A stretch of DNA of 64,000 bases from Cadophora sp. MPI-SDFR-AT-0126 (Eukaryota > Ascomycota > Leotiomycetes > Helotiales > Ploettnerulaceae), in contig JAGMVK010000014.1 in NCBI GenBank assembly GCA_020747065.1, positions 248,001 through 312,000 on the forward strand, read 5' to 3'. Of this stretch, positions 18,782 to 63,256 are shown piece by piece. The notes under the pieces are model-generated. The model was not told the DNA's origin. It made no database searches and saw only the letters and a list, made by a program, of their open reading frames with translations. The position numbers were made by a program, and so were the translations under genes. Position 1 is the stretch's first letter. The number at the start of each line of letters is the position of its first letter.

Positions 18782-21700
18782 TTAGCTCTTCTTTAATCTG
18801 AAGAAATGAGATTCTCCTTGACGAATATCCTAAAATAACGATTCTATCCTAGATAGCTTTATAAGTAAAGTAGTAATCAGTAAATAGCTAGAGAATATTC
18901 GTGATACTATCTACTAGCTAATTATTTTATATACATAGAGTTAGTAGTAGCTTGCTATTAGGTGAGAAGGCAATAGAAGTAACTGAGTCCAAGTAGTCCT
19001 TGAGTATTTACAGCGCTATTCCTATTATAATATTCCAAAGCTATACTATCTTATTAATAAAGCCCAAGATAATTTACTTACTATTAAGTGAGAAGGCGAT
19101 AAAAGTAACTAAATACAAGTAGTCTTTAAGCGTCTATAGCACTGCCCTTATTATAGCGTTCTAAAGCTATACTACTTAATTATAAGAGCCTGAGATAACT
19201 TACTTACTATTAGGTAAAAAGGCAATAGATCTAACTGAATCTAAGTAGTTCTTAAGTTTCTATAGTAACGTTTCTATTATAGTATCTTAAAGCTATACTA
19301 TTTTATTATTAAAGCCTAAGATAATTTATTTACTATTAGGTAAGAAAATAATAGAAGTAACCTAATCCAAGTAGTTCTTAAGTATCTATAGCACTATTTC
19401 TATTATAATATCCTAAAGCCGCACTATCTTATTAATAAAGCTTAAAATAACTTACTTATTATTAAGTAAGAAGGCAATAGAAGTGACTAAGCCTAAATAA
19501 TCCTTAAGCGTTTACAGCACTATCCCTATTATAATATCCTAAAGCTATATTATTTAATTATTAAAGCTTAAGATAAACTACTTACTATTAAATAAGAAAG
19601 TAATAAATCTAACCTAGCCTAAGTAGCTCTTAAGTATCTGCAGCACTATCCCTATTATAGCGTCCTAGAATCGTATTATCTAATTATTAGAGTCTAAAAC
19701 GACCTACTTACTATTAAGTAAGAAGGTAATAGATCTAATAAAATATAAGTAACTCTTAAGCGTCTATAGCGCCGTCCCTGTTGCGGCGTCCCAGAGCCGC
19801 ATTATTTAATCGTAAGAGCTTAAGATAACCTACTTGCCGTTAAATAAGAAGGCAACAGAACTAACCTAGCCTAAATAGCCCTTAAGTATTTGTAGCACTA
19901 TCCCTGTTATAGCGTCCTAGAATTATATTATCTGATTATTAGAGCCTAAGATAGCTTACTTATTATTAAATAAGAAGGCAATAGATTTAAGTAAGTCCGA
20001 GTAGCTCTCGAGTGTTTGCAGCGCTATTCCTATTATAGTATCTTAGAACTGTATCATCTGATCGTTAGAGCCTAAGATAACCTACTTACTATTAAGTAAA
20101 AAAGCAACAGAAGTAACTAAGCCTAAATAGCTCTTAAGTATTTATAGCGCTATCTCTATTATAATATCCTAGAATTATACTATTTTATTATTAGAGCCTA
20201 AAATAATCTACTTACTATTAAGTAAGAAGGCAATAGAAGTAATTAAATATAAGTAGTCTTTAAGTATCTATAGCACTATCTCTATTATAATATCCTAGAA
20301 TTATATTATTTAATTATTGGAGCCTAAGATAATCTACTTGCTATTAAGTGAAAAGGTAATAGAAGTAACTGAGCCCGAGTAGCCTTTAAGTATCTGCAGC
20401 ATTATCCCTATTACGGCGTCCTAAAGCCGTACTATCTCATCGATAGAGCCTGAGACGACCTGCTTGCCATCAGGTGAGAAGGCGATAGAAGTGACCGAAT
20501 ACGAGTGGCCTTCAAGCGCCTGCAGCGCTGAATCCCAATCTGCTCGTACTCTTAGCTGCCTTTGAATCTAATGAGAGACACGCGCTTTGAACTCTCTCCG
20601 AATAATACTTATTTCCGGTGCGAAAACGAGTGCTGCGCAATAAAGCTGTAAAGGTGCCTGCTCAATCATTGATCGGTTAAATAAGGCAAATCGCTTTATA
20701 TCATGGATAAACGCTTGTAAATTAGGACATCTGCCATCCTTTACGCAGTTAACTAACCCTTCTTAGGTAGATTTTAAAGAAAACTTACACGAATAAGTGC
20801 CTCTAAAGAGAGTATTGCAAGAATCCCTTCTGAAGCCTTCTCTATCCAGCCAAGGGCCTCAAGCCAGTGGAGGAGATGCACTCGGAGGAATTAGTGAACT
20901 TGGTCCTTGTCATAAAGCTAAGCATTACTCTTCTGTAAATGCTGAATCCAGTAAAGACATGCATATTGGACCTCTAAGGGAAGGCATTTCTCAAGGCGAT
21001 TACATTCAACCTAAGAGGCTAAATAACCTGGAGCTTGTAATTGGTAAACGTCCTTCTTAAGTGTCTCGGACATGAGCTGTATGCAGCCAGCAGCCAGTGC
21101 CTGGTGCGCCTGCTTCTCGTCTACCCACAAATTTGGATCTTCGCATCGATCTTTATGGAGGAGAAAGTCGCGAAAGGAAGAGTGATGCAAACGAAGAAAA
21201 CCAGCAATACTATTTGGAACATCTAAGATGGCTTGTAATTTCCCAAGCGTCTGTTTAACCTATATTTCAGTGAGGCCAGTTAATCTCCCTAGCGAGGCAG
21301 CGGGAAGTGGGGATAACAAGGTAACAATGCTTCCGAGAATTAGTCGTAGTCTCGAATATAGCCGCACTTTCTCCGGTTCTCTAAAAGTCCTTGTTATGGA
21401 GCTATGGAGTACAGTAAGATATATCTAGTCGAGGTGCCGTTCCGGTGTGCCGTTAGAGCTAGTTCCTTCAAGAATCTCACAAAGCCTGTCGTTAGCAAAT
21501 GTTTCGCCTTCGTCAAGAAATCGACAGGCAGTAGCAGCCCAAACGAATAAGCCACTTGATTTTTGTACCAGCTATCTAAGGGCCTGCTCGCCTAGCCAGC
21601 TAACTTCAAAAGTCCACTTTTGCCCGATTATCACCAGGTTATATTCCAAGAAGAGAGAGATGTCATAGTTAACAATCGTTAGTTGTATGTTATAGAGTAC

Positions 21701-24132: not shown

Positions 24133-27100
24133 CTATAGATCTGCTATATTCTTCAACCACTGCTCGATTAATATACTATTATTTGCATTATCAGTTGAAG
24201 AAGACCTTACTATACTAATACCATCCAATTCAAAGAATGTATGGCGTTGACATGAAGAACCCTCTTCAAGGTTATTACTTTTCAATTTATTAAAACAGCT
24301 TTTACATATATCCCTGTCTTTACAAACCGTGCAAACAAATCGACTCGTGTCGACATATAACCTAGTATTACAGCCATCACAATCTGCATTGTATTCAAGT
24401 GAACTTAGAGCTAATTGATGTGTAAAGGCAGCTGCAGACTTTTCATTATCTCCTACCTAGATGAATGCTCGCCTAACACTATCAAATAGTACTAGTCTTA
24501 AGTGTGGAAATCTAAGGCAAAGGCTCGCTAACTGCTTGATATACGTAAGTACAATAGTACGGCCTAAGAGCTTGGCAGCTGTATAGCACTGTTTTTTGTA
24601 AAGGAGACCTAGATTATTAACCGTAGTGAGTATTGACGTGTACTCCGGGCCCTAGACTTTCTCGTAGCCTTATAGCGCCTACTAGTATATTAGCTCGGCC
24701 TTAATTAGCTTACCTTAGTTTTTATAGACGATCTCTAGGTTATTAATTATATTAAGTATTAATAAGTACTTTGAACTCTAGGCTTTCTTATAGCCTTATA
24801 AAATCCACTAGTATATTTTCTTGGCTTTAATTAACTTACTTTAGTTTTTATAAAGGATTTCTAGATTATTAATTATATTAAGTATTAATATATGCTCTAT
24901 ATCTAATACTTTCTTTTTACCTTATAGCGCCCGCTAGTACATCTTTTTAGCCTTAATTAGCTTACCTTGACTCTTATAAAGGATCCCTAGGTTATTAACT
25001 GTATTAAGTATTAATATATACTCTATACCTAATACTTTCTCCTTACCTTATAGAACTCGCTAGTATATCTACTTAGCCTTAATTAGCTTACCTTAGTTTA
25101 TATAGAGGATCCTTAGGTTATTAATTATATTAAGTATTAACGTGTACTCTGTACTTAATGCTTTCTCCTTACCTTGCAGCGCCCACTAGTACATTTACTT
25201 AGCCTCGATTAGCTTACCTTAGTTTACATAAAGGATCCCTTAGTTATTAATTATACTAAGTATTAATATATACTCCAGACCCTAGGCTTTCTTGTAGCCT
25301 TATAGCGCCTATTAGTATATCTACTCGGCCTTAATTAGCTTACCTTAGTTAGTGTAAAGGAGCCCTAGATTATTAATTATATTAAGTATTAATATATACT
25401 CTAGATTCTATACCTTTTCGTAGCCTTATAGCACCTACTAGTATTTTTTCTTAGCCTCGATTAGTTTACCTTAGTTTTTATAAAGGATCCCTAGATTATT
25501 AATTATATTAAGTATTAATATATACTTTATACTTAATGCTTTCTCCTTGCTTTATAATACCTGCTAATATATCTTCTTAACCTTAACTAACTTACTTTAA
25601 TTTTTATAGAGGAGACCTAGATTATTAATTATATTAAGTATTAACGTATACCCCGGACCCCGTGCCTTCTCCTTGCCTTCGAGTGCCTACTAGTACATTC
25701 GCTCGGCCTCGACTAGCTTGCCTTAGTCGGCGTAGAGGTCCCTTAGGTTATAATAATCGTCTACTAGCTCATTGTTTATAACTAAACTATTTGAAAACAT
25801 ATATAAATATCTTACTATATATTAGAGAAGCTAATATTATATTATCTATAGCTAACTATCCTTCTCTCTAGGAATATATACTCTTATAAACTTTATAGCT
25901 ATTCTAGCTAGTTCGTAATCCTATTCTTAGTTTAGAGTATAAATAGTCTAGGAGTAAATACATCTATAAATACTATACCCTATAGACTTGATTAAGTCCT
26001 ATAGAAACGTAGCTACTTCCATTAGCCTATAGCTACTTAAGACCCGTACTATACTGTTAAAGCTTAACTTATCTCTAGTAAGCTCTTGCAGTTATTTAGG
26101 TTTATTAGATTCACTATATTGAAGAAGCTCGAACTAAAGATCCTAGTTATTAAAATACGCCTATAAGCGAAGAAAGTTCACTAAGAAGAGGTTCTGCTAT
26201 TTAATATTTTTAAAAGAGATTTACTATATTAAGTACAAGATCCGGTCTTTATATAAGCTTAGCTCAGGGCTTACCTCCTTAAACCTTACCTATAACTCCT
26301 TATATAGACAAAGATAGTCTAAGAAATTCCTTATTATTTAATTAAGATATACTCTAGTAGTAGCTAATACAAAGGAAAGGCTATCTAATTCCTCTGTAAG
26401 CTTTATAGTATCGAGATCTAGTTTAAAGTATTAACTAATAAATATTAAATATAGAATATCCTTACTTATCTTTAGTTCTTATTATCTTAATACTATTAAT
26501 AAAATCTCAAGGCTATCACGAATATCACTAAGCTTCCTAATCTAGATAAGATAATTAATTCTAATCTCAGATAACTATATTATAATAATAAGTAACCCTT
26601 AATATAATTCGGGAAAGAACTTTTTAATATTTATAATTATAAGATCTGTCCTACTAAATATTTTAGAAGTATCATAATTATCGTAGATTATTAGCTATCA
26701 TATATTATTAGGCAGACTTAACTAAGTCTTAATAGCTTTAACAACTTTATCCAGGTTTTAGTTCGTTTCTTAATTACTAACTAGGATAGCCGATAAGTGT
26801 TCTCTTAATATCTGCTTAGCTAGCTTAGTAAAGCTCTGCTTTACAGAATCCTCGTCTTTAATATTAAGCCAGAATATTACTAAGTAATTATCCTTATACT
26901 ACTTCGTATATATAATACTAAATTATATCTTACTAATTCCGCCTAGACCATATAGAATAACTGCCTAATAGAACCTATCGCCTCTAAGTATCTTATATAT
27001 TCTCAAGAACTTATCTTCCTAGGCTACAAAATATTTGATATCGAAAGTATTAGAAAGGCTAAAGGTGACTAAGAAGTTCTCGCGCTTAAGACCTAACGTA

Positions 27101-40933: not shown

Positions 40934-41937
40934 TTACAGCAAGTAGCTGCACTTGAAGTAATTCTCCTGCAAGGCATCGTGTAGCCGCGCGAAAACTCCA
41001 CCATGCCACGTCCTAAAATCACTCCACTTTATAAAGTCAGCATTGTCTTTCTACTGCCTGTTTTTGATCTCAGATCACGGGCAGAAGCAGGGAGATTGAG
41101 CACATACCTCTTCCTGAGGCATAGTGGCAAAGAGCATATTCAGCCATCCTCCCACAATTAGGTCGGCATAATTAGCCTCCTTTCCCTCAAGATACGGCCC
41201 AGTCTCGTGCACCATGAATAGCTGGGCTAAAGACGTTAATCCTGTCTTGAACGCCGCCTTCATCTGCTCTCTTGCCTTGCCCCGAATCGACAAATCGTCC
41301 CATGAGTTCAGCCGTGCACGCTTAAGAAAGACGGCTCTCGTGGCTTCGGCAGTCTCTGGGTTGAAGGGAAGGAACTGAGCGACCAGCCCGACGTAGGCGG
41401 TAAAGGTAGCGTCGATCTGCACGTTGAACCTTGCGTAGTCACTGTTATTGGCACCCTCCCTGGAGGTTAGAGGAACGAGAAATAACATGTCCTTGTTTGG
41501 GCTCTCGTAGTCGAGTCCGGTGCGCGTGGATCCCGGCGGGAAAAGACAGCCACCTGAATCGGGAAATGTGTCCTCGAGGTAGTTTGCGATGTCGAAGGAG
41601 TCTCCAATGACTTCTCCAGTGGCACTGTTCCGTAGTATGGGAAGCGTGAAGAAGTCCGAACCATCGGCGAAACTGCGGGTGGCTGGGCAATGAAGACCTT
41701 TGCGGACATTGGAAATATCAAGCATATCAACCCACTAAGAGCTTAAACAGTCAGGTCGTGAGCTTGGTAGATTTTCAAAATAGAGGTAAGGTGAGTTCGA
41801 ATGCCACTTACTGTTGTTGTGAAGGTTACAGATTTGAAGCTGAGCGCAAGACGTGCCTTGGAAGGATTTGGCGCGTAGGAGCGAGGTTGTAAAGGTGACG
41901 AGATGTCATAAAGGATCAAAGAGCCCGAGTCTGTCAT
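40934..41937 (-). CDS. Glutathione S-transferase-like protein (281 aa, 3 exons)
   Basis: Exons 41937-41812, 41734-41108 and 41026-40934 join in frame (GTAAGT and GTATGT donors; CTGAC branch sites) to give 281 residues. The N-terminus, MTDSGSLILYDISSPLQPRS, is the first beta strand/alpha start of fungal GST-like proteins. The thioredoxin-fold half contains LPILRNSATGEVIGDSFDIA and NYLEDTFPD, the Pro/Ser glutathione-binding region (cis-Pro before the ILR strand; D-S in GDSFDIA). The helical C-terminal half contains GPYLEGKEANYADLIVGGWL and the typical end WSDFRTWHGGVFARLHDAL. Likely cytosolic conjugation or a lyase-type role; substrate unknown. Similar GST-like proteins occur in secondary-metabolite clusters, but this gene lies about 20 kb from the RiPP genes. 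The first ATG giving the GST start was chosen; an upstream in-frame ATG exists at 42,018. Confidence 0.85.
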
Positions 41938-45248: not shown

Positions 45249-46297
45249 CTATCCTTCCAATGCCGTCTTGAACGCCTCAGCTACCGTTATTTTCGGTGCC
45301 CGAATTTCAAAAACCTCCTTACTCGTTGTAGCTATCCCGCACTTTCCCTCCCATGAAGTCTCGACCGCGTGCTTGATCGAGAGAGTAAGGACCTTGAACG
45401 GTCCCTGTGCGATATGATCAAGGAACGATAGATCTTTGAAGATCACCTTGTCAACTTTGGCTCCAATCTCCTTCTCGACCATCTTTACAATCTCCTGACC
45501 GCTGACATCCTCCGGCCCATTCAGCACATATCGCTTTTTGTTGTGTGACTCCGGGTTAGGGCTTGCCAGCACATGTGCTGCGAAAGCCCCAACATCGTTT
45601 GCATCAATAATTCCAACGCCAACGTCTTTTGAGCCAATCAAGCTCAAAGGCTGCTGCTTGCCCGTCTTGCGATACTCTTTGACCAGCCCCACGGCACTGC
45701 CCAGAACAAAGCTAGAAAAAACGTTGGGTTGAAGGCTCGTCCACACCATTCCTCTGAACTCCTCGGTATCCAGCATTGCTTCAATGGCCCAGTGTGTGCG
45801 AGGATAGTATGCCCGGAAGCTTGGATGCACATTCGCAGCTGTAGTGGAGATGCGCACGACCTGCTTGACGCCTGCATTCAGTGCAACGACGAGAAAATGG
45901 GACTCCTCAGCGAAGGCTGACGGCTCATTGTGGGAGGCGATGAAGACTTTCGTGACCTCATTCTCGTGGAGCCAGTGACTGGTGATGTCAAGCCAATTTT
46001 GCTCCAGGATCGACACTTTGGGAAGAGAAGCCAATTGTTTCGCAGCGTCGCCAGAAGCCGATCGTGTTTGTGCGATGAGGCGGTAGGAAGCCACTGGGCT
46101 AGTGGGGACTTGGATCAAGTCTGAGAGTGTAGACACCACGCTGCGGCCGGTGTTGCCAGTTGCGCCAACAACAAGTCTATGATCGGAAAACAAATGTCAG
46201 TATGCCGTTCTATCGCATGTTCTCAGCCTGTTCAACCGGCTATGGCTTGATTATGAGAGCCTAAGGGGTACGACACAACGTACATGGAAGGAGCCAT
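45249..46297 (-). CDS. NmrA-like NAD(P)-binding Rossmann oxidoreductase (313 aa, 2 exons)
   Basis: A 14-nt first exon (46297-46284, MAPS plus two bases) is joined across a GTACGT...TAG intron to 46176-45249, giving MAPSILVVGATGNTGRSVV at the N-terminus. GATGNTG is the glycine-rich dinucleotide-binding loop of atypical SDRs of the NmrA/azoreductase-like group. No catalytic YxxxK is obvious, as usual for NmrA-type members. Later blocks fit that fold: VKQVVRISTTAANVHP, then YPRTHWAIEAMLDTE, SLQPNVF and YVLNGPEDVSGQEIV. Relatives include festuclavine/agroclavine dehydrogenase-like enzymes and redox sensors; the reaction here is unknown. Skipping the tiny exon leaves an in-frame start at 46,193 with no proper N-terminus, so the two-exon model is preferred. 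Confidence 0.85.
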
Positions 46298-49860: not shown

Positions 49861-52800
49861 ATGGAAAGCTGGCCAAAGAAAGTTATTTGGCTTACTGCTA
49901 CAGCCTTCTCTTGCCTTTTCAATGTCCATCAAACTTCGGCTGCTCCCGCTCCTGTCACTACCTGGACACCTGAGAACCAATCGTTAAACAATGCATCCCT
50001 CTCCTCGGCCGATTTTGGGGTTTTCACCAACAAAATCCGAGACAACTCTATCCCGTTGCGCATTTTAGGGCTGGGAGCCTCCATCATGGCCGGATGGGGT
50101 TCCCCCTCCTACAATGGGTGTGTGTTACTCATCTTCGAGTGCCATATTTCAAAGACTAGAGCGCACCGGCTGACTTGTGTTTAGTGGCCGTAAACCTCTG
50201 CGAGATGCACTTAGACAGGATGGCTGGGACGTGGACATGGTCGGAAGTCTGAAATGCGGAAACATGGTCGACAATGTCAGTAATTTTACTTCTGCTACCG
50301 CCATTTGATCAAATAAAGTACAATGCTGCTAATGCTTGATAACAGGATTGCGAGGCTGTTGCTGGAGATGTTCTTACCCAGATCCTAGCAAGGGTCCCTC
50401 ACTCTCTCGGTTACAAGGTTAGTTGGTTCCCTATCTCACGATGCTTTTACGGATGATTTCCATGGCTCAATTTCCGGGCTAACGTTGTCAAATAAGCCTA
50501 ACATTGTCATAATCAATGGTGGTACGAACGATGCCAACGGGCCAGCGCCTGGATCAGCGAGCGTTTCCACTGCGGGTAATCGTATGAACGACATTCTCAA
50601 CGCACTCTGGGGCGCCGACGGCATGTCTAACACCTGCATCATGTTGTCAACCCTTATTCCTACCAATAATGCCAACGGGATGGTCAATGTACCTGTGATC
50701 AACAATCAATATCGTGCACTTGTCACCCAGCGTGCTGCTGAGGGCAAGTGTATATATTTGGCAGAAATGTGGCCCAATGGTGACTCCGCCCCATGGTTAC
50801 TCTTTGATACTCATTATCTGGCGACTGAATCGCCTCATGTTCATCCGAACGTACGTCGCTCACTTCCCACAATAGTGCTATCGCAAATGTATCAGAACTA
50901 ACAGCCCTATCTATAGGACAAGGGCCACTCCATGATGGCATCGGTATTTTACAACTCGATTCTGTCGGCTATATCAGACAACAGGTATTTTGTTCAATCA
51001 TTGACGATCTTTGTCATGGTTACTAAATCTGAAAACAGGATCGTTGTGCCTGGCGAAATGGTCCTCGGATCCACAGTTTGCGACAAGGTGGCAGGTACTG
51101 GCGTTGATGCCGGCGGTCTCACCCAGCGTGGCAGTGGATACGATGATGGGATCTACTACCATAACAGCGCAGAACAGGGCGTGAGTGCCTATTCGTTTTG
51201 AGAAATCTCGAGCGCTTGAGACAGGAACGATTGGCTAACCTGATCATGTAGGTGGTGTTGACTTTGACCAATAATTATGACCGTGGTGATTACAAATGGG
51301 CCCGGCTCTTCAACCGCAATTATGACGACCTTCTCATTTGGAACAACCATTCGGCTACTTCTCAAGTATACGCTGTCTTTGCCAATTCCGCCGATGGGAA
51401 GGGAACTTTCAAACAGACTGCAAGCGCCATGGATGGTGATCTGAACTGTGAGTATCCGGAAGGCGTCAATTTTATCGACATGAATGGAGATGGCCTAGAC
51501 GACCTGGTTTATATCGATGCGGATGGGAATGCTTATCTATCCATCAATCAAGGAGATGGAGATCGCGGCGCAGGAAAACCACCCACCTTCAAACGTGTGA
51601 GTAGTACGGCCAAAATTATGGACACCAACGGTTATGACAGGCCTTTCGTGGTGCTCGCGGACATTGATGGAGACGGTCGAGGAGACTTTGGCAGAATCGA
51701 CTATGACGGAAATGTAAAATTTTGGCGGAACGGCGGAACCGGCGACAGTCCCTCTTATTGGCAGGCTTTAGGACAAAGGTGGGCCAGCAAGAACTACGCA
51801 GGGTCAGACCTTAACGGGAATTTCGAAGGTACACGCTTTGAAGATGTCAATGGAGATGGACGCGATGACATGGTGTGGCTGGATCAGGACGGATCTGGGC
51901 ATGTGTGGACCAACTCCCGAAGCTGTGGGAAGGGGCTCGAAGGGGACGGATTGAAAGTTGCCTGGCGGGAAGGCTTCTACCAAGGAGGAACCAGCAAAGC
52001 TTACGCGGGCATGGGCGCCTACGTCACTAAGACGGAGACGAATCTTCGACATCGTATTCATTTCGCCCGAATCTACGGTGAAGTAAATATCTTCGGTAAT
52101 CTTCCCAGACAGGACTACGTTTTCATGGAGCATAGTACCATCGGCAGCTATCATCAGTTCAAAATCCGTGTATGGAAAAATACGGGGGGCGGTGGGACTA
52201 AACTCAAAGGCGACGGCAATAAGTAGTAAGTTTCCAATCTAGCTGTCTTCTCATTGGAAACTACATGAGTTCCGCAATTGCTGATTTTTATATGATCCAG
52301 CTGCAACATGATGGGCCATAGCAACGGCATGGTAGACTATGTCTGGACATACTCTTTCGGAACCATGGAGATGTGGGCAAACCGTGGTAAAGGCAAGATA
52401 TCAGACTCAGACCCGGACGGCTACTGGGACTATCAGGTAAGACCATCATTAATCCATTTGTCGATCTTTGTCTGGATGTTCAATGCCTGCTTTCAATGTC
52501 GCTTTTCGTCATGAAACACCAATAACAATTCAAATAGGGTACCATCTGGACACCTCCGAATAATATAAACCGCAAAGACTTGCATTTGAGCGACTGGGAC
52601 GGTGATGGCGCCTGTAATATCATCTATGTTAACCCAGATAATGGTGCTGTGAAGGTCTGGTACGTACATAATTTCTAAAAACTTGATACCCTTATACAAG
52701 CGATTCACATTCCTACTTCGCGAAGTCCCCGCTGTATTCCAAGATTCACATATTTGAAACTTTTGCGAGAAAAGTATACTAAATCGATGTTCTAGGCTCA

Positions 52801-55800
52801 ACAGATATCCGAAAGAGGGCAACTTCGACTCTTGGAACTCGATTGAATACCTTCCAAGTACCATGTCTTGTTCTGAAAAGCGCGGACTTGGCTTCTCTGA
52901 CCTAGCTGTCCGTTTTGCTGATATCACGGGGAATGGACGAGCCGATTACTTGTGTATTTCACCTGATACCACGGTCAAGGGCTATATTCACAATTCCGAC
53001 GGCTCCTTCACCTATCATGATCAAATCAAACTTTCTATCGGAAAAGATCGAGCCAACTTGCGGTGGGCTGATGTGAACGGCGATGGGCGCGAGGATATGC
53101 TCTGGATCGAGAAATTCTCCGGTGGTAGGTGATCGAGAAGAACCCAATTCTTCGTTCTTTCAGGACTTTCTCAAGTTACTTCATATCTGCTAGTCCTAGA
53201 AATACATTGATAAAGTGGTTGCTAATGATATGATCAATTTAGATACCTTCGTATATTACAACGAGGGGCCCAAGGATCCAAGTCAGGCTGCTGGTTCCTC
53301 GTTCGGTTGGTACGTTTTCTGGGCTAGTACCTTTCCCTCGGTTAAGTGTCTAAGGGGTATTGTATTCGGAGACAAGCCCCCAAGGCATAACGAATGAGCA
53401 ACTACTAATGTATAAATCATCACAGGAGAGTGCAGGATGAAGTCGCTTACGCTGGCCAAGTCGCTGGCAGTTGTGAATATTTTGCAGATCTTAACGGCGA
53501 TGGCTTTGCAGACGAGCACTACCTCAGTGATGGTACATCCAATAACAAAGCAATGACCTCATTGTCTCCTGGATGTGTAGGTACATGGGGAAGGCTAATA
53601 TCTCCTTTTCCTGCCAATTTTCATAATCGCATCATATCTTATTCCACTTCCAAAACTGTCCAGTCAGTCTTAGTGCTAACCTCTTCCCCGTCTACTTAGG
53701 GTCTGATCGACAACACCGGTGATGACAGCGACATGACCAGTGACCTCCCTTTACCGACAGTACCGGGTAGCGGAAGCGGAGGAGGGGGAGGGGGCAGTGG
53801 CGGGAATACAGGAGAGGGATGCATATCTGGCACAGGTACAGGGGAGTATTCCGCCCTGTGCAACTTCGTCTGTGCACGTGGATACTGCCCAGCTCCTTGC
53901 AGCTGTACTGCTACAGGTACTTACGTGAGTATTCTCCGAGATATCTCCCTGACCCGGTTTTTTTTGGCAGATGCGATACTTCTTCGGAAATTTCTATCTA
54001 AAGAATCAAAACTAATGTGGAGATCATATTATAGAACTCGGGAACCGAAGACAACACTATCGATGGGTACGCAAATGTGGGCTATGACCAAGCTACCTTC
54101 ACTCCGCTCTGCAACTTTGCGTGCAGCCACTACTTTTGTCCCGATGAGTGCCTCTGGACCGACATCATCGACCCCGATGTAGCTGGCACTATCCCCGCCC
54201 TGCCAGCTCTGGATGATTACATCGAAGATGTTGAAGTTTCTGCTGGCGCCTTTTATCGTTACCAATTCCCTGAAGATCCAAACATGAGTGTTAGCATCTT
54301 ATAGTAAGTAACAGCCGAGTCTTCCCTCAACATTCCAGATCGATCCGGGAGATTAAGCTCTTGCACTCCTCTCCGCATAAACTTACCAGCTATTGCCTTT
54401 CCTTGCCAGCACGGAAACTATATATTGAGATTTTGCTGATAGCTGTCTCTTCAGTGCCGGGAACAAGATATCTCTGCCTAGTGATATCACATGTGCCAAT
54501 AGTGAGTTGAGCCTTGGCTTATATCTGCACGGGGTTGAATGATCAAGTCATACTGATAGAAACTCTTTAACAGTAACCCCAGGCGATAATGGTGCATTAG
54601 TTGGCTGTGTTGGAGACACCGTCGAGTGGTTGTTTCTTTCTTTATCCCAGGATCCCGACGTACGCAAAATCGAGGGTCGCGACGAACCCAAACCACCTTC
54701 AACCTCAGACCATACATTCACACCACTTCCGCACCTTCAACCCGGGTATGGCTGCTCTTTGCACTGTCAATTGAATGCCTCGGCACCGCGCGAGACGTGG
54801 ACTCCCGTTGGGGAAGGCACGCTGAAAGGTCGAGCTCATAGCCTTCACTTTATGCATACCGGAAAAAGTGTCGTATTCAAGGCCACCGCGGGCTCTCTGA
54901 ACACAGCAAATTTACAAGAACGGGTGGAGAGCAGGGCATTGGGCGCTGCTCTGACATTCGAAATTGGCGCGTGGGCCTACATGATTAACCATGTAAGTGA
55001 TTTCACGAGATCAACAAAAAACGCATCCTTTCAGCTATTGGGGCAGTTTCCAGTTACAAATGCGCCTCTTGCTAACCCAGCACCGTCTCAGCTGTACAAT
55101 ACCCCAGACCAGTTTAAGGTAAATGTGCCAAATCTCGTACATCCGATTATGGATGCTGCGGTTGGTAAGGTCTTGAATAATTGTCTATTTGTCGTATCAA
55201 ATGACTCGGCTACCATAAGCCTGGACACGATCGAGACTGGATTCGGTGTTATGATTGCTCCAAGCACGTCGCTTGCGATTGACACCGACACAGTCGATTC
55301 TATTTCGAAAACCTGCGAAGATGAACTCAAAAACAAACGTCGATACATTGTGTGGCCCCGCAATGGAAATGATGTGGACTCTCTTCGGACCCAGCTGTTT
55401 CTCTTGGACCCGGCGACAGAAGAACACAAATCTGTGAATTCATGGGGTACTATGTACTTCATTTCTCGCTTAACAATCCTAGAGGCGGCGAAGGTGACTT
55501 CAAACAAGCAGGTATTTGACCCCATTACCCGCCAGCGTATATAAAGTAGCAGAGAATGCTGATCGAAATTATTTCAGTGTATGGAAGTTGAACCGCATTG
55601 CGAAAATAATCACTGCGAAGACCCATCACTTTTCAAGGACAAGCACGTTCCCGATCACGATGTGGCTTTGGACAAGTCGATAAAACCTGCTCGTACTAAC
55701 ATCAAGCCTGAAACCATAGTCGAGGTTACCCGAAACGTCGAAAAGCGGGATGGTATGTGGACTACTCAAGATGATGCACGTCCAGAGCTTGCCTTCATAT

Positions 55801-56910
55801 CGCGCCCCTCTGGCAGCACTCGAAATTCTTACGTGTACGACGCCACCCCGCCAGATAAACAGGCTAGGGTATATATTCTAGATGGAGGATACATTGACGT
55901 AGATCTTCCTGTAAGCAAAAAATCTGAAGCAACCCGCTGTTATTGGTTCTACGGTGTTGATCCGAACGTATTTAAGATTGACCAACATTTTCAGGAATTC
56001 ACTACCGTGACCGATAGCACCGGCAAAACAATGAAGCAAAAGGCAACTCTGGCTTCTATAGGACCAGAAGGCTGGACCGCTGCAGATGCGCGGAATGGTT
56101 TGCATGGCACCGCGATGCTGACGTTCTTAGCCGGAGGCTCCTATGGAGTTGCGAGAGAAGCTGTGCCATACGGAGTGACATTCGCTGCGGAGGACGGCCA
56201 CCAGTGGGTTATTAATGCTCTTGATGACATTGAACGAGATTGGAAAGCAACCAAAGCAGCTGGATTGTTAGCAGACATCTGCGTACTTTCCATGTCATTT
56301 GGATATCTTCCAGATTTCGGCGGGACAGCTTTCAACAAACATTTCGCAGATAGACTCAAGGCTCTAGACAGCCTCGATATGCTCAGTATCGTTGCCGCAG
56401 GTAATGACGGGGAGGTGAGTAGACTAATTGTTTTAGTTAGACGTTTCAAAGAGAACTTACGAATTACCAGGCAATCAAAACGGTTCCTCAGATTTTTGCC
56501 GATAGCAATACCCCAAACAACAACCACGTGAATACCATGCTTGTCGTCGGCGCTGTGGATAGCACTGGCATTAAATGGCAATACTCATCGACAGCCAGTT
56601 TCGTTACATTATATGCGCCAGGCGTAGACTGCACATGGAAATCGAAAGACCCTGCGACTGGAGCCATAAAGGTACACGTTGATCCTGGCACATCTATAGG
56701 TAGGCAAGCTTCCAGCTCTTCCAAGACCACGAAAATTAATGATTCACGTTTGGTGTAGCGGCAGCTAAAGTAGCTGGGCAAGCGACACAACTTCTTGGAT
56801 TACCAGACATTTCGGACGAAATTCTTGACATAACAGATTTACGATCTATATTGCTGGGCGATGCGTACCCTCGAGTTACTGAATTGGCTGTGTACAACGG
56901 CGCGCCGTAA
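49861..56910 (+). CDS. Giant secreted SGNH hydrolase / FG-GAP / Cys-rich / subtilisin fusion (1819 aa, 19 exons)
   Basis: Nineteen exons (49861-50117, 50185-50275, 50346-50417, 50497-50850, 50917-50984, 51039-51180, 51252-52225, 52301-52436, 52538-52659, 52796-53124, 53243-53309, 53426-53576, 53700-53924, 54035-54303, 54455-54501, 54574-55511, 55578-56414, 56471-56699, 56759-56910) keep one frame of 1820 codons. Order: signal peptide (1 to about 26); SGNH/CE3-like esterase with LGLGASIMAG (Ser74), GGTND (148-152) and SPHVHPND (252-259); seven FG-GAP/VCBS calcium-type motifs such as VNGDGRDD; a Gly linker; two Cys-rich modules (CARGYCPAPCSC, CSHYFCPDEC); a long unknown segment; then peptidase S8 with Asp1516 (YILDGG), His1590 (HGTAM), Asn1690 (AAGNDG) and Ser1768 (GTSIAAAKVAG). 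Likely extracellular or wall-acting; substrate unknown. A split into two genes near 54.6 kb is possible, but there is no ATG there and splice phases match. Confidence 0.8.
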
Positions 56911-57115: not shown

Positions 57116-59862
57116 CTAAAATCCATGACTCTCAAACCAGATCTCCATGCCCGCGCGGTCTCGTTCAACCCAATTCATTCTGGCTTCACCTCCCTTAACC
57201 GCTTCCTCAAACGCCGGTTTAAATTTGTCCTGATTTTGTTGTTAGTTGATTCCCATCAAGACCAGCTTGTGAGACGTACCTCAATAGATGAAGCAAAGCT
57301 CCTCAGCTCGTCCAATTGCAGAGCTGTCGATAGACCGCTAGTGCAACTACCAACGTATCGGGAAACAGTCACCCTGTCAACGCGACCGAAATTGTTCCAT
57401 TTCTCTTTCAACCATTTCCAAGATGCATCAGCCCCGGCATGATGCGTCTGAAGTGCATTCAAAAGGAACCATTTTTCCAGCGAGGAGAATGGCTCACCGT
57501 CCTTTGTCATGAGCTCCAGCGATCGCTGGATCAAGGTCGGGGAATCTGCGTAGCCAAGGGCAACGAAAGCATCAGTACGGATTTCAGGATCTCGTGTCGT
57601 GCGGGCGAGTTTCAAAATGGATTCATACTACAACCAACGAGTACGCATGCAGGTTAGCTTCTTTTTCTTGACTGGTCGGAAATCTGTCTGCATCCAAACT
57701 GTACTTCTTTCACTTACACGATCATTGATGACGGCTTGAAATACGTGCTTCCGGATATTGGGATTCAAGATTTTACCTTCGCCAGCTACGAATTCGTCAA
57801 AAAGTGTTGAAGAGACAGCTTTGAGGTGACTGTGCTTGGCTCCTTGGGCGTAGAAGAGCGCCTTTGCGTTTTGACTAGGAATAGGATCATTGGAAGTGAT
57901 TTTCCAAACACGTTCTGGCGTGTTGGATACAACGAGATGCAGATGGAGGTTCTGTAATGCTGTACGAATCCGAGATGATGAGAACAGGAATGCTTGCCAG
58001 ATTTTGGCAAAGACGAAGAAGATCTGCCGCCAAACAAGGAAGTGTTGTCCATTTGGAAAGCCGTGTATAAGGTCGAGTATGTCAGCAGTGGTCATCGGTA
58101 TGTCAAGACAGGATGAGACCAGTGCATGGGAATCAGAAATCAAGCCAACCCAGTCTTCTGCCGTTAGACTGAGATTCGATGTCTGCTTCCCAAATGCCTG
58201 TATGCGACACAGTGGGTAACAAACACGATAAAGTCCGATCTGCCCTGCATTAAGCTTGTAAGATTCGAGATCGACTGAATATTTCTGCTTTCGCGAGGCC
58301 AGCAAAGCGGAACTGTCCACTTCACCATCATATTTCGTCTTCAAGTTCAAAGGAATATGGTATATGTTCTGGTCTTCCTCTGGCTCCACCGTAATTGCTT
58401 GCAAGTAGCGATGTTGCTCAAGAGTAATGGTGCCATTGACATCATCTTCAGAGACCAGCAGAACAGGATAGCCAGCGCTTTTGGTCCACGTGTGCATAAC
58501 ACTACTCACATCTGTACCACTGCTGGCAGTCAGTGATACCCAGAGATCATGAGTCGTAGCGTTTGCGAAGGCATGCATTTTAAGGTAGTTCCGGATGCCG
58601 TCAATAAAGACATCTGTTCCTAGGAATCGAGAGAGCATCCTGAGAAGCGAAGCGCCTTTCATATATGTGATGTTATCGAAAAGCTCGTGCATGCGGTCAG
58701 GTGAAGCATTTGGATTGTAGACCGCGTGACACCCCGGCGTTGAGTCGAGGTCCAAGGCTCCCTGATAAAATGCCATGGCTTCAGGATCAGGATCCGCAGC
58801 CACAAAATGTAACCAGTATCTCCATTCTGGAAACATCTTATCGACCACATGAAAGCCAGCCCATTCCGCAAATGCTTCATTCAACCATAGATCATTCCAC
58901 CAGCCCATAGTCACCAGGTTTCCGAACCACTGATGAGCGATCTCGTGGCACAAGGTTTCAACGGCCATCTGCCAGGACTTCGCAGCCGTCGTCTCAGGAT
59001 CAAGAAGAAGGAAGCGCTCTCCGAAGACGATACATCCCCAGTTCTCCAGTGCACCAGAGTCAGGCAATGCGATTAAGTCCAGCTTGGGAAGAGGGTATTC
59101 GAGGCCGAATATGTGTTCGAAAAGATCCAAAGCTCGTGTAGCAACGTCGAGCATGTTCGACGCATGTTGGATATTGGCTCCCTTCAGAGCATATGCCCGG
59201 ACAGGAAACTTGAGCTTTTTGGACTCGATGAAGTCAAAATCGCCGATGACAAAACAGATCAGGTAAGTAGATGTTTTAGGCGTGGTGTTGAAAGCAACTC
59301 GTTTGGAAAATTGCCCTCCAGATCCGGACTTCGTGACCATGGATGAACGAACGTCCATATTGCTGACGCACGTCAGATCTTGATTGATGGTGACCGTGGA
59401 TGAAAGCGTGGCTTTGAAGTCGGGTTCGTCCAGGCATGGAAAAATACAGCGTGCCCCGATCGGCTCACAGCTTGTCGAGTAAGCCCGCAGACAATCCCCA
59501 TTGGCGTTCCTGTAGGCAATCCATTGGAAGCCAGGAGTTCTACCATTCTCTTTGATCGTCCCGTGGAAGGACTGGCGAAGCAGAACCTTAGATCCAGCGT
59601 CCAGTTGCTCTGGTGGAGAAACTGTGATTGTCTGCTGGTCGGAGTCGTAATGAACGGCGGGAATGTGGACTGTGTAACCAGAAGAATGCACGATTTCTGT
59701 AGCGTCTATCTCTAGATCTTTCGCGTGGAGAACAATTGACGTGGCTTGTTGGCAGACATCTAGATGAGCCTCGACCGAACCTTGAAAAGTCAAGCCATCT
59801 AGATCTAGGTTTAGATCTAGATCGTAATGGCTTGGTATCACGGTCCTTGGTAGACGGGTCAT
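57116..59862 (-). CDS. M1-family zinc aminopeptidase (868 aa, 3 exons)
   Basis: Exons 59862-57718, 57627-57280 and 57229-57116 join in frame (GTAAGT/GTACGT donors, CTAAC branch sites) to 868 residues, the usual size of Ape2/AAP1/puromycin-sensitive-type enzymes. MTRLPRTVIPSHYDLDLN is the typical start; an in-frame ATG 12 codons upstream is less likely. The exopeptidase motif GALEN is at 270-274. Zinc site HEIAHQWFGN has His306 and His310, with Glu329 in WLNEAFAEW, giving HExxH-x18-E with catalytic Glu307. The C-terminal ERAP1-like helical domain ends MNWVERDRAGMEIWFESHGF. It removes N-terminal residues from peptides and has no signal peptide, so it is probably cytosolic. It neighbours the RiPP pair and could trim peptides, but a housekeeping role is equally likely. 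Confidence 0.93.
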
Positions 59863-60428: not shown

Positions 60429-61575
60429 TCACAGCTCAGATGATGGGGCAGGACAGTCTTTTGGTCTAGTGATACCATCAAGCTTCTTCAACATAAATCC
60501 ATCCACAGTGCTTGTGACTTCGAGCTCGTCAAGATGAGGTGGCATCTCGAGTAGCACTGCATCGGCCGGTCTGACGATTTTCTCCCACTTGGCGGGTTCG
60601 TCTTTCAACTCCACTTCTTCTTGCCATCGAAGCAACGCGTCGAAATCTCGACACAACTTGTTTGCCCCGATGTCTGGGAAGGGATTGTGCTGCGTGTGTC
60701 GCCAATTGTACGTGAGCATCTCCAAATCTGCGTTGCACATGATGTTCTGCCGCAAAATATCGATACAGTGGTCGACATGAGACTCGAACATAACGGGAGG
60801 TTCGTATCCCCAGTCTTTTCCCCAGTAGTAGTCGTAATTCAGAACATTGGTCCTGCGCAATGCATCAAGGCAATGCAGCTGGTGGAAAACATCAACTTCG
60901 GCCATATAGGTGTCTGGACCGTAGCCCCATTCAGGCATAGTTTTGGCACATTCCGTTGCATTTTTGCCAATCTTTTCAACCTCTTGCTTTGTGAGGGCAT
61001 GCATTCCAATATCTGCTCAAAGTTAGCATTTCGAAAGTGATTTGACTTTGAACCGGGAGGCCTACGGGAAATACGCTCCCATGCAGCATCAACCTCGGGA
61101 CTTGGTCTCATACGATAGATGTGCTCAGGATTGCCTGGCTCTGGGAACAGGGAGGCATCAATCTTCTTCCTGATCAAAGGTATGTGGATCTTGTCCATCA
61201 CGGGAGCTACCAAAAATTCAGCAAAAAGGACCTTATTACCTTGCAGTAGAGACATGACTCACAATACGCTGTCTTCTTGTACAGATTGCTACCTTCTTCA
61301 CGGCTTTGAACTACCCAAGTACCGAGAACAGCGGCATAGATACTAAGTCCATAGACCAGCATCATAGTGACAACACCCGCAGTGTTAGCTGCGATGTGCG
61401 GCAAGCGGGAACGGCGTGCTGGCTTGAGAGTGTAGGACATGTCAAAGCCTTCACCTTCTGCCTTCTCACTATTTACATCACTATCACTGAACCGTGATGC
61501 AAAATCTTCTTTGTTGTCATCGTGACCGACGGAGGAGTACGCGATTTTCTTCGCAATCTTTTTGGTAATCCACAT
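60429..61575 (-). CDS. UstYa-family (DUF3328) oxidative cyclase/crosslinker (345 aa, 3 exons)
   Basis: Exons 61575-61263, 61206-61066 and 61012-60429 join in frame (GTGAGT and GTAGGC donors) to 345 residues. Cytosolic N-terminus, one membrane helix (about 63-89, TAGVVTMMLVYGLSIYAAVLG), then the UstYa segment: YSPVMDKIHIP, WGYGPDTYMAEVDVFHQLHC with HQLHC at 195-199, and SHVDHC with HVDHC at 230-234. These two HxxHC motifs are the family hallmark, thought to bind the metal used for catalysis. Relatives act in ustiloxin, phomopsin, asperipin and cyclochlorotine pathways, where they crosslink, cyclise or hydroxylate peptides. It is longer than many homologues because of a C-terminal extension of about 110 residues after HVDHC. 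Transcribed divergently from the repeat-precursor gene at 62,542, the arrangement expected for a dikaritin-type RiPP cluster. Confidence 0.92.
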
Positions 61576-62541
61576 TGTTTAATTTTTTGTCAATATGGTG
61601 GATGAGAGACGGTGAGAGGGTGAGCCTGCCTCTGAGGAGGATTCTGAAAGTATGTTCAAGCTTTGGATATAGTCCAGCAATGACTCTGAAGGCTGGCAGT
61701 CTTTGAATCAGAAGTTATTTAGCTCGGTTTGCATGGTATTTGCATCTACGAGACAAGTCTTCGTTAGCGCTGTCGCCCTAGTAAGTCCTTATCACCCACG
61801 GAACCCAAATGGCCACTTTTGCGCATGCAGGCAATCCATGTCGGTCTTGATCAGGTTACTCTACATGGTTGATCGTATGATGATGAGTATGAGTAGGAAC
61901 TGCGCAACCTCCTTCTATGTTGGGTCTTTGCATGCATACGAGCTTACCGTCGTGTCGTGGAACCGTAACTTGATGTCAAGGTCGGCCGACCTCTTCACTA
62001 TCCACAGTCGGCCGACCAAATCTGGCCATCGATTGGCTGAGATAAGTGGGATCTGAAGATCTTACACGTTGCTGTTTAGGACCATGCTGGTTGGGAGATG
62101 ATTCCAGCCGTTCACTTCCTGGTGTGTATGTAGTATGGCATGCAACAACAGCTTTGTTTGGTTAGCAGATTTGACACGGCTCAAAGATCGGCAGTTGTGA
62201 AAGTTGCATTAGCTATCACGTAAGACAATGCACTATATTTTCAATCCAAAATGGAAGGTCAAAGTTATCCGCGGTTGCGACTAGTAAATGCAGAAAGCAG
62301 GATCCACACACAACGCTAGCTGTTGATCGAGATGACCCAAAAACGGATAAACGACTTGAAATTGATCACCCCGCCTTTGTAGAACTGTGAAACATTACAT
62401 ACAATATACAGACAATAAAGTCCTGTCACCTTCATCTGCATCCTCCAAGCTTCTTCATTCTCAAAACTTGTTCTAAGCTTTTCCACTCACATCTCCCTCT
62501 CTACAAGCAATCAAGAATCGTCCTCACACATTCATACCATC
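61576..62541. other. Bidirectional promoter between UstYa and RiPP precursor genes
   Basis: 966 bp shared upstream region. It contains two GGTCGGCCGACC-type palindromes (61,980-62,017) and, on the precursor side, a CT-rich leader (about 62,430-62,510) typical of fungal transcription start regions. Only short ORFs. Confidence 0.6.
61980..62017. promoter_or_regulatory. Pair of GGTCGGCCGACC palindromes, candidate Zn2Cys6 regulator sites
   Basis: GGTCGGCCGACC (61,980-61,991) is a perfect 12-bp palindrome. AGTCGGCCGACC (62,006-62,017) repeats 11 of 12 bases, 26 bp centre to centre. TCGGCCGA contains abutting inverted CGG half-sites, the usual recognition pattern of fungal Zn2Cys6 factors. They lie about 405 bp from the UstYa ATG and 525 bp from the precursor ATG. 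A binding role is inferred. Confidence 0.55.
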
Positions 62542-63256
62542 ATGAAGGTCCAAAATGTGTTCCTTTTGCTAGCCGCCCAGGTGATCACCGGAGTTATATC
62601 GGCTCCAGTCGCTGCTCCAGGTAATGATCAAACGCATAGTTCTTCCTTGATGGTTGTGATAACACCATAGCTGACTTCGTCGTTATAGCTGCAGCATTGG
62701 AGAAAAAGGACATTGAGAAGAAAGGTGTTGCCGAAGTATGGGCTAATTGGTAAGTTCTAACGTGGCTTGAGAATTACAATTGGATCTGACCCTCAAACCA
62801 GGAATCACCCTCCCGGAAAGAAGGTTGAGGCCCCAACAGAGCAACTCGAGAAGAAAGGTGTTGCTGAAGTTTGGGCGAACTGGCAAGTTGTGACATCGTC
62901 TTTGAAACTCAATAATATCTGATCTGTCGCGCCAGGAACCATCCTCCGGGAAAAAAGGTGGAGTCAACAGAAACCCTTGAAAAGAAAGGTGTTGCGGAAG
63001 TCTGGGCTAATTGGTAACTTAATCCTTGGCATTGTCAAACAGACACACAGTCTAATTTCAAATTTAGGAATCATCCTGCCGTGGGAAAGGTCGAAGCGTC
63101 GGCAGACCAGCAGCTTGAGAAGAAGGGCGTTGCCGAAGTCTGGGCTAACTGGTGAGTTTCATAGCTGTATGGGCAATAACAGCATCTGACGTGAGTTATA
63201 GGAATCACCCAAACAAGGGGAAAGTCGTGGAAGAATCCGCCGACGAGAGTGAGTAG
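62542..63256 (+). CDS. Secreted repeat precursor with four kexin-flanked core peptides, putative RiPP (dikaritin-type) precursor (145 aa, 6 exons)
   Basis: Exons 62542-62620, 62689-62749, 62802-62882, 62936-63013, 63068-63151 and 63202-63256 join in frame. Signal peptide MKVQNVFLLLAAQVITGVIS-A, short pro-region, then four copies of EKK-GVAEVWANWNHP, cores starting at Gly39, Gly66, Gly92 and Gly120. Lys-Lys before each core is a kexin site. Copies 1 and 2 also have PPGKK after the core, so GVAEVWANWNHPPG could be released. In copies 3 and 4 the second KK is lost (AVGKV, NKGKV). Spacers are acidic (VEAPTEQLE). Every core is split at its second Trp codon by a phase-2 intron; the intron at 62,883 uses a GC donor. 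The architecture matches ustiloxin/phomopsin/epichloecyclin precursors, and UstYa is adjacent. No core resembles one I know. A pheromone-like or structural Kex2-processed peptide is an alternative. Confidence 0.88.

What the first reader, a model, noticed from the sequence alone, without database searches (positions are those of the whole stretch)
62542..63256. Candidate new fungal RiPP precursor with core GVAEVWANWNHP(PG)
The sequence shows a signal peptide, a short pro-region and four near-identical repeats, each introduced by Glu-Lys-Lys. Such a layout is established for kexin-processed dikaritin precursors (ustiloxin UstA, phomopsin PhomA, epichloecyclin GigA). The core has two Trp, one His and no Tyr, unlike the Tyr-containing cores of classical dikaritins. 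Any UstYa chemistry here would therefore have to use Trp, His or an aliphatic carbon. I know of no described peptide with this core.
Basis: partly seen in the sequence, partly recalled or inferred. Interest (0 to 1): 0.92.

Follow-up and report, generated by a model that had tools for sequence, protein, structure and literature searches.

The report
Trp-rich fungal peptide precursor with UstYa enzymes
A fungal genome carries an intact gene for a secreted protein holding four copies of a short tryptophan-rich peptide, flanked by two oxidase genes of the kind that turn such peptides into cyclic natural products, so it probably makes a small modified peptide; the product itself has not been seen.

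Summary
Window 62542-63256 encodes a 145-aa secreted-type precursor with four repeats EKK-GVAEVWANWNHP; all ten variable nucleotide positions among the repeat heads are silent. Beside it lies a UstYa gene (60429-61575, -); just past the window end lies a second, divergent UstYa-family gene, 100% identical to an annotated Cadophora sp. MPI-SDFR-AT-0126 protein. Homologous precursors occur in two other Cadophora and three unnamed records; in Cadophora sp. M221 precursor and UstYa bear consecutive locus tags. The palindrome GTCGGCCGAC, 34 sites genome-wide, occurs three times in the promoters of these three genes.

Best reading: a Kex2-processed peptide oxidised, probably cross-linked, by two UstYa-type enzymes at Trp, His, Asn or aliphatic carbons. 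No tyrosinase lies within 220 kb and no S41 peptidase was found, so it is not a dikaritin in the strict sense. Trp-containing or Tyr-free repeats beside DUF3328 genes are known as a class (PMC7329392): a new variant of a known kind. Chemistry and function are untested.

The parts
62542..63256 (+). Precursor gene, six exons 62542-62620, 62689-62749, 62802-62882, 62936-63013, 63068-63151, 63202-63256; 145 aa; four repeats EKK-GVAEVWANWNHP
   Evidence: gene model and translation; homologues
62750..63201 (+). Stretch with the four repeat-splitting introns (62750-62801, 62883-62935, 63014-63067, 63152-63201), each in phase 2 of the second Trp codon of its repeat
   Evidence: inferred from sequence, no RNA
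60429..61575 (-). UstYa-family gene, exons 61575-61263, 61206-61066, 61012-60429; 345 aa, one predicted membrane helix by eye, two HxxHC motifs
   Evidence: (PF11807, E 1.2e-53); homologues
61981..62016 (.). Two copies of the palindrome GTCGGCCGAC (61981-61990, 62007-62016) in the divergent UstYa/precursor promoter
57256..59862 (-). M1 aminopeptidase gene next to UstYa (exons 59862-57718, 57627-57256; 838 aa, HEIAH at residue 306); membership of the pathway is only possible
   Evidence: other M1 loci in the genome
63257..64000 (+). Intergenic stretch that leads, past the window end, to the second UstYa-family gene (C6:312669-313722) with a third copy of the palindrome at C6:312433, and to an S53-type peptidase gene (C6:314763-316963)

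Best explanation
The gene encodes a secreted, Kex2-processed repeat precursor of a UstYa-type pathway. Shown: signal-like N-terminus, dibasic site before each of four cores, invariant core, a UstYa-family gene on either side, a shared promoter palindrome. Inferred: Kex2 releases peptides that begin GVAEVWANWN; the two membrane-bound UstYa-family oxidases act on the invariant AEVWANWN segment in the secretory pathway and most likely close a ring through Trp, His, Asn or an aliphatic carbon; other peptidases trim the ends (the neighbouring M1 and S53 enzymes are candidates); the three core genes are switched on together. The product is probably a small secreted bioactive peptide of a plant-associated fungus.
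For: Silent-only differences between the four repeat heads. Five homologous precursors, each holding AEVWANWN with changed surroundings. UstYa beside the precursor here and, by consecutive locus tags (IFR05_001195, IFR05_001196) and equal longest-contig length 142,761, in Cadophora sp. M221. A second UstYa-family gene on the other side; in Clarireedia jacksonii the two UstYa relatives bear tags 004690 and 004692 with equal longest-contig length. Both HxxHC motifs invariant in 30 of 30 aligned family members. Three of the genome's 34 GTCGGCCGAC sites in the two promoters, 0 of 3000 simulations with such a palindromic 10-mer. DUF3328 genes are enriched next to repeat precursors (PMC7329392, section 7).
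Against: No RNA, peptide or product. No named precursor was found for Clarireedia, Agyrium or Phaeoacremonium, although their UstYa relatives are 71-88% identical. The second UstYa gene of Cadophora sp. M221 was not listed under that name. The last copy in P0001 reads GLAEARAN, not the core. The KK behind the core is missing in 2 of 4 repeats, so the C-terminal end is unclear. No Tyr and no Phe for the cross-links that UstYa enzymes are known to be involved in. The promoter motif was noticed first and tested afterwards; a palindromic 8-mer pattern arose in 10 and any shared 10-mer in 30 of 3000 simulations.
Confidence: 0.6

Rival explanations
1. The UstYa enzymes oxidise the peptide without closing a ring (hydroxylation, dehydrogenation or the like), and the product is a linear modified peptide.
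For: The lichen RiPP paper says DUF3328 proteins catalyse diverse modifications, ether bonds and hydroxylation among them (PMC12048977, passages). The core has no Tyr or Phe.
Against: Two UstYa genes, as in ustiloxin, where both are needed for the first cyclic-pathway intermediate together with a tyrosinase (PMC6514808, passages); AprY alone is linked to two ring closures (same passages).
Confidence: 0.22
2. The released peptide is a linear signal (pheromone or hormone type), and the UstYa genes act on something else.
For: Trp residues close together are common in repeat precursors, mating factors included (PMC7329392, section 6); the layout is the same as that of alpha-pheromone precursors.
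Against: No Cys and no GQxC type ending in the core (pheromone motif recalled). Pheromone-type repeat precursors were without DUF3328 neighbours with three exceptions (PMC7329392, abstract). UstYa and precursor share promoter palindromes and conserved adjacency. The fungus's own pheromone gene was not found by my patterns, so this rival is not fully excluded.
Confidence: 0.12
3. A decayed or unexpressed repeat gene, or a secreted structural repeat protein that is not cut into peptides.
For: No expression evidence was available here; the KK behind the core is kept in only 2 of 4 repeats; one homologue, P0001, ends in a degenerate copy.
Against: Silent-only variation between the repeat heads, dibasic sites before 4 of 4 cores, homologues with the same core and different spacers.
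Confidence: 0.06

Closest known systems
Kex2-processed repeat proteins (KEPs) with DUF3328 neighbours (PMC7329392)
   Same: Signal-like start, tandem repeats set off by dibasic sites, UstYa/DUF3328 genes next door.
   Different: The core is not among the types described in the sections I read; supplementary tables were not readable. Each repeat carries an intron; that paper's text has no word beginning with 'intron'.
Asperipin-2a (aprA/aprY)
   Same: Precursor plus UstYa-family enzyme without a tyrosinase in a four-gene cluster (PMC6514808, passages).
   Different: Asperipin's core FYYTGY is closed through Tyr; there is one UstYa gene, with a transporter and a reductase that I did not find here.
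Ustiloxins and phomopsins (dikaritins)
   Same: Multi-copy Kex2 precursor; ustiloxin has two UstYa-family enzymes.
   Different: Tyr-Ile ring, tyrosinase, S41 peptidases and methyltransferase against no Tyr, no tyrosinase within 220 kb and no S41 match here.
Victorin
   Same: UstYa-type pathway product closed without Tyr, through Phe and Leu (PMC9233826, passages).
   Different: Different core; Phe is absent here, Trp and His are the only aromatic residues of the core.

Membership tests
KEP with DUF3328 neighbour | Signal peptide | tested here: inconclusive
   Hydrophobic N-terminus by eye; no predictor on hand
KEP with DUF3328 neighbour | Tandem repeats set off by dibasic Kex2-type sites | tested here: met
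   EKK before 4 of 4 repeats
KEP with DUF3328 neighbour | DUF3328/UstYa gene among the nearest 15 genes | tested here: met
   One on each side
Dikaritin, five-gene definition quoted in PMC12048977 | Precursor with leader and repeated cores | tested here: met
Dikaritin, five-gene definition quoted in PMC12048977 | Tyrosinase in the cluster | tested here: not met
   43 PF00264 matches in the genome; the two on C6 lie near 86 kb, over 220 kb away. The same passage says that working clusters lacking one or more of the five exist
Dikaritin, five-gene definition quoted in PMC12048977 | Methyltransferase | tested here: inconclusive
   None among 40 scanned reading frames and six further proteins; short exons can be missed
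Dikaritin, five-gene definition quoted in PMC12048977 | Several DUF3328 proteins | tested here: met
   Two
Dikaritin, five-gene definition quoted in PMC12048977 | Transporters or peptidases | tested here: inconclusive
   M1 and S53-type peptidases adjoin; S41, the family named for dikaritins in PMC6514808, has 0 matches in the genome
Dikaritin, chemical sense | Ring closed through a Tyr of the core | tested here: not met
   No Tyr in the repeats
Ascomycete alpha pheromone | Trp-Cys ... Gly-Gln-x-Cys type core (recalled) | tested here: not met
   The core GVAEVWANWNHP has no Cys
RiPP | Post-translationally modified product | not testable with these tools
   Needs mass spectrometry

The most novel reading that the evidence does not exclude
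Two UstYa-type oxidases join the two tryptophans of AEVWANWN to each other, or to His, Asn or an aliphatic carbon, giving a Tyr-free, Trp-bridged macrocyclic fungal peptide kept in several Helotiales; use or skipping of the in-frame repeat exons (81, 78, 84 nt) could set how many copies a precursor holds.
Probability: 0.33. Interest if true: 0.8.

Novelty: new variant of a known kind. Interest (0 to 1): 0.55.

Why it matters
What UstYa-family oxidases can do to residues other than Tyr is, as far as I know, an open question in fungal natural-product chemistry. This locus is a compact case: one precursor, two UstYa-family genes, a core whose only aromatic residues are Trp and His, and no tyrosinase nearby. 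The precursor is easy to miss because each repeat is broken by an intron: the homology search listed this strain's second UstYa-family protein as annotated but no identical precursor. Mining that relies on annotated proteins may overlook such genes.

Tried and rejected
Structure: a UstYa model was predicted on the Clarireedia orthologue (26 sequences, mean pLDDT 64.4, pTM 0.54). Foldseek against the PDB gave 24 matches at E <= 10 and 0 at E <= 0.001; a PDB sequence search gave one match at E 0.021 that I take as chance. The structure adds nothing about the chemistry.

Pheromone control: I sought this fungus's alpha-pheromone gene by recalled patterns, which matched four places; the frames that I printed around all four showed no repeat precursor. 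Inconclusive.

Dedicated M1 and S53 peptidases: an S53 tripeptidyl peptidase taking off GVA would leave EVWANWNHP (inference); this fits AVA in P0004 but not AEIA in P0005. The genome has M1 matches at 5 places and Pro-kumamolisin matches at 17 places by my count, and neither gene has the palindrome in the 122 kb scanned. Kept as candidates only; I had no search left to test whether they adjoin the UstYa genes of relatives.

Intron copies: of six intron pairs one (introns 2 and 3) scored above nearly all shuffles (3 of 500 reached it); the other five were reached by 34, 45, 60, 163 and 285 of 500. Tandem duplication of an exon-intron unit is neither shown nor excluded. P0003 and P0004 seem to have introns in some repeats only (read from their translations; no DNA seen).

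Literature: none of five core strings occurs in the held library. Searches on UstYa, DUF3328, Kex2, Trp and Cadophora listed no paper whose title or abstract start describes this peptide. Supplementary files could not be read, so the core may sit in the KEP tables of PMC7329392 or PMC6339444. A gigA intron search was swamped by unrelated words.

Full report
What is there. The window is C6:248001-312000 of a 54-Mb, 38-contig genome. At 62542-63256 (+) six exons encode a 145-aa protein with a hydrophobic start, a short pro-region and four repeats beginning EKK-GVAEVWANWNHP. A 74-aa part of it matched the own genome at five places, all in this one locus. Over the 15 codons of the repeat head the four copies differ at 10 nucleotide positions, 10 of 10 silent, which means selection on the peptide. 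What follows the core varies: PGKKVEAPTEQL, PGKKVESTETL, AVGKVEASADQQL, NKGKVVEESADESE.

Introns. Besides a 68-nt intron in the pro-region, each repeat carries its own intron of 50-54 nt in the codon of the second Trp (TG|G). The three inner exons are 81, 78 and 84 nt long and could be skipped without a frame shift. One donor is GC. The joints are inferred from sequence and homologues; there is no RNA.

Neighbours. Divergently, with 966 bp between the start codons, lies a UstYa-family gene of 345 aa (60429-61575, -). In an alignment of 30 family members (this protein, 26 of the 67 found and 3 of the 11 found) both HxxHC motifs and two further Cys are invariant. Beyond it on the same strand is an M1 aminopeptidase gene (57256-59862). 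Past the window end, 1412 bp behind the precursor, is a second, divergent UstYa-family gene (C6:312669-313722, 296 aa, PF11807 E 5.4e-22), then an S53/kumamolisin-type peptidase (C6:314763-316963, 633 aa, PF09286 E 4.6e-46), then a helicase reading frame (PF00271) that I take as the right border. Forty reading frames of the surroundings gave no transporter, methyltransferase or transcription factor; genes of short exons can be missed this way, as the second UstYa gene was at first. Tyrosinase matches on C6 lie only near 86 kb (2 of 43); S41 has 0 matches in the genome.

Organism and relatives. The second UstYa-family protein is 100% identical to an annotated protein of Cadophora sp. MPI-SDFR-AT-0126 on a contig of 1,497,170 bases, the length of C6, so the window most likely comes from that fungus (Helotiales, Ploettnerulaceae). 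Homologous precursors: 5 proteins at E <= 1 among 5762 candidates, from Cadophora gregata f. sp. sojae, Cadophora sp. M221 and three unnamed records. AEVWANWN occurs in 5 of 5; before it stand GV, AV or AEI, behind it H or W; the last copy of P0001 is degenerate (GLAEARAN). Of the UstYa search (67 proteins) four cover at least 97% of the query at 71-88% identity: Clarireedia jacksonii, Agyrium rufum, Cadophora sp. M221, Phaeoacremonium minimum. Of the second UstYa search (11 proteins) four are full-length at 79-100% (Cadophora, Rhexocercosporidium, Leptodontidium, Clarireedia), one is a partial at 88%, and the other six drop to 33-40%. In Cadophora sp. M221 precursor and UstYa bear tags IFR05_001196 and IFR05_001195 with the same longest-contig length, 142,761. 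In Clarireedia the two UstYa relatives bear tags 004690 and 004692 with the same longest-contig length, 1,867,080. The order UstYa - precursor - second UstYa therefore looks conserved, but it was not seen whole in any relative: Clarireedia's middle gene and M221's second UstYa gene were not listed.

Shared promoter element. GTCGGCCGAC occurs 34 times in the genome, no more often than its reversed control (37). Three of the 34 lie here: two in the UstYa/precursor promoter (61981, 62007) and one 236 bp before the second UstYa gene. The expected number in those 2378 bases is 0.0015. In 3000 Markov simulations of the two stretches, 0 had a palindromic 10-mer at least three times across both, 10 had a palindromic 8-mer so, and 30 some shared 10-mer. 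The motif was noticed first and tested afterwards. Its form (CGG/CCG) would suit a zinc-cluster regulator (recalled).

How it probably works. Kex2 release, oxidation of AEVWANWN by the two UstYa-family enzymes, trimming of the ends. Repeats, dibasic sites, enzyme families and gene order are shown; cleavage, oxidation, ring closure and joint regulation are inferred. The KK behind the core exists in two of four repeats only, so the end of the product cannot be read from the sequence. Bacterial RiPP pathways do use M1 proteases for leader removal (PMC10885120, passages), which makes a role for the M1 gene possible, no more.

Relation to what is known. Repeat precursors with DUF3328 neighbours are a large class: 1758 of 7878 KEPs; 65.6% of their repeats have Tyr and 20.5% Trp (PMC7329392: abstract and sections 6, 7 and 9 read). 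A Tyr-free, Trp-bearing member is therefore not a surprise in itself; what the enzymes do to such a core I found in none of the papers that I saw. PMC6339444 (abstract, sections 10, 16 and 17) names conserved motifs, one of them YVW[G/A][G/S], but not this one. Strict dikaritin membership fails on tyrosinase and on Tyr. The same genome holds other repeat precursors with Tyr next to UstYa matches, two of them within about 6 kb of tyrosinase matches, a contrast with the Tyr-free locus that has none.

Verdict. Real, apparently intact, conserved in relatives, and not found in the searched literature: a new variant of a known kind, with the chemistry open.

Noticed in passing
L024 (C5, about 1,076,200-1,076,500) and C5:1070942-1074635: A frame with five copies of a TIEDYVGGVDVDK-type repeat close to a UstYa match (C5:1077344) and to tyrosinase matches: looks like a classical Tyr-type cluster.
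   Followed up: partly
L020 (C36, minus strand) and L022 (C33, minus strand): Two further repeat frames beside UstYa matches: SGEGVVVADKEKYDRR units, and three units around ALGNY; a tyrosinase match lies near the second (C33:981466). Only about 1.5 kb on each side of 30 UstYa matches was scanned.
   Followed up: partly
61981, 62007 and C6:312433: Palindrome GTCGGCCGAC three times in the promoters of precursor and both UstYa-family genes, 34 sites in the whole genome.
   Followed up: yes
60429-61575 and P0007, P0008: The window's UstYa is 87% identical to that of Agyrium rufum (Lecanoromycetes) but only 80% to that of Cadophora sp. M221, the same genus: transfer, contamination of the Agyrium assembly, or paralogy.
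   Followed up: no
1-33700: AT-rich half of the window (22-41% GC in 2-kb bins) with 126-bp tandem repeats at 18951-20492 and 24652-25651; probably RIP-affected repeats (recalled).
   Followed up: no
50389-53132 and 54543-56800: GDSL-like (below cut-off) and FG-GAP frames, then a gene that by eye resembles a divergent subtilase although its two long frames had no Pfam match.
   Followed up: no
41075-41734 and 45249-46196: Reading frames resembling a glutathione S-transferase (below cut-off) and an NmrA-like protein.
   Followed up: no
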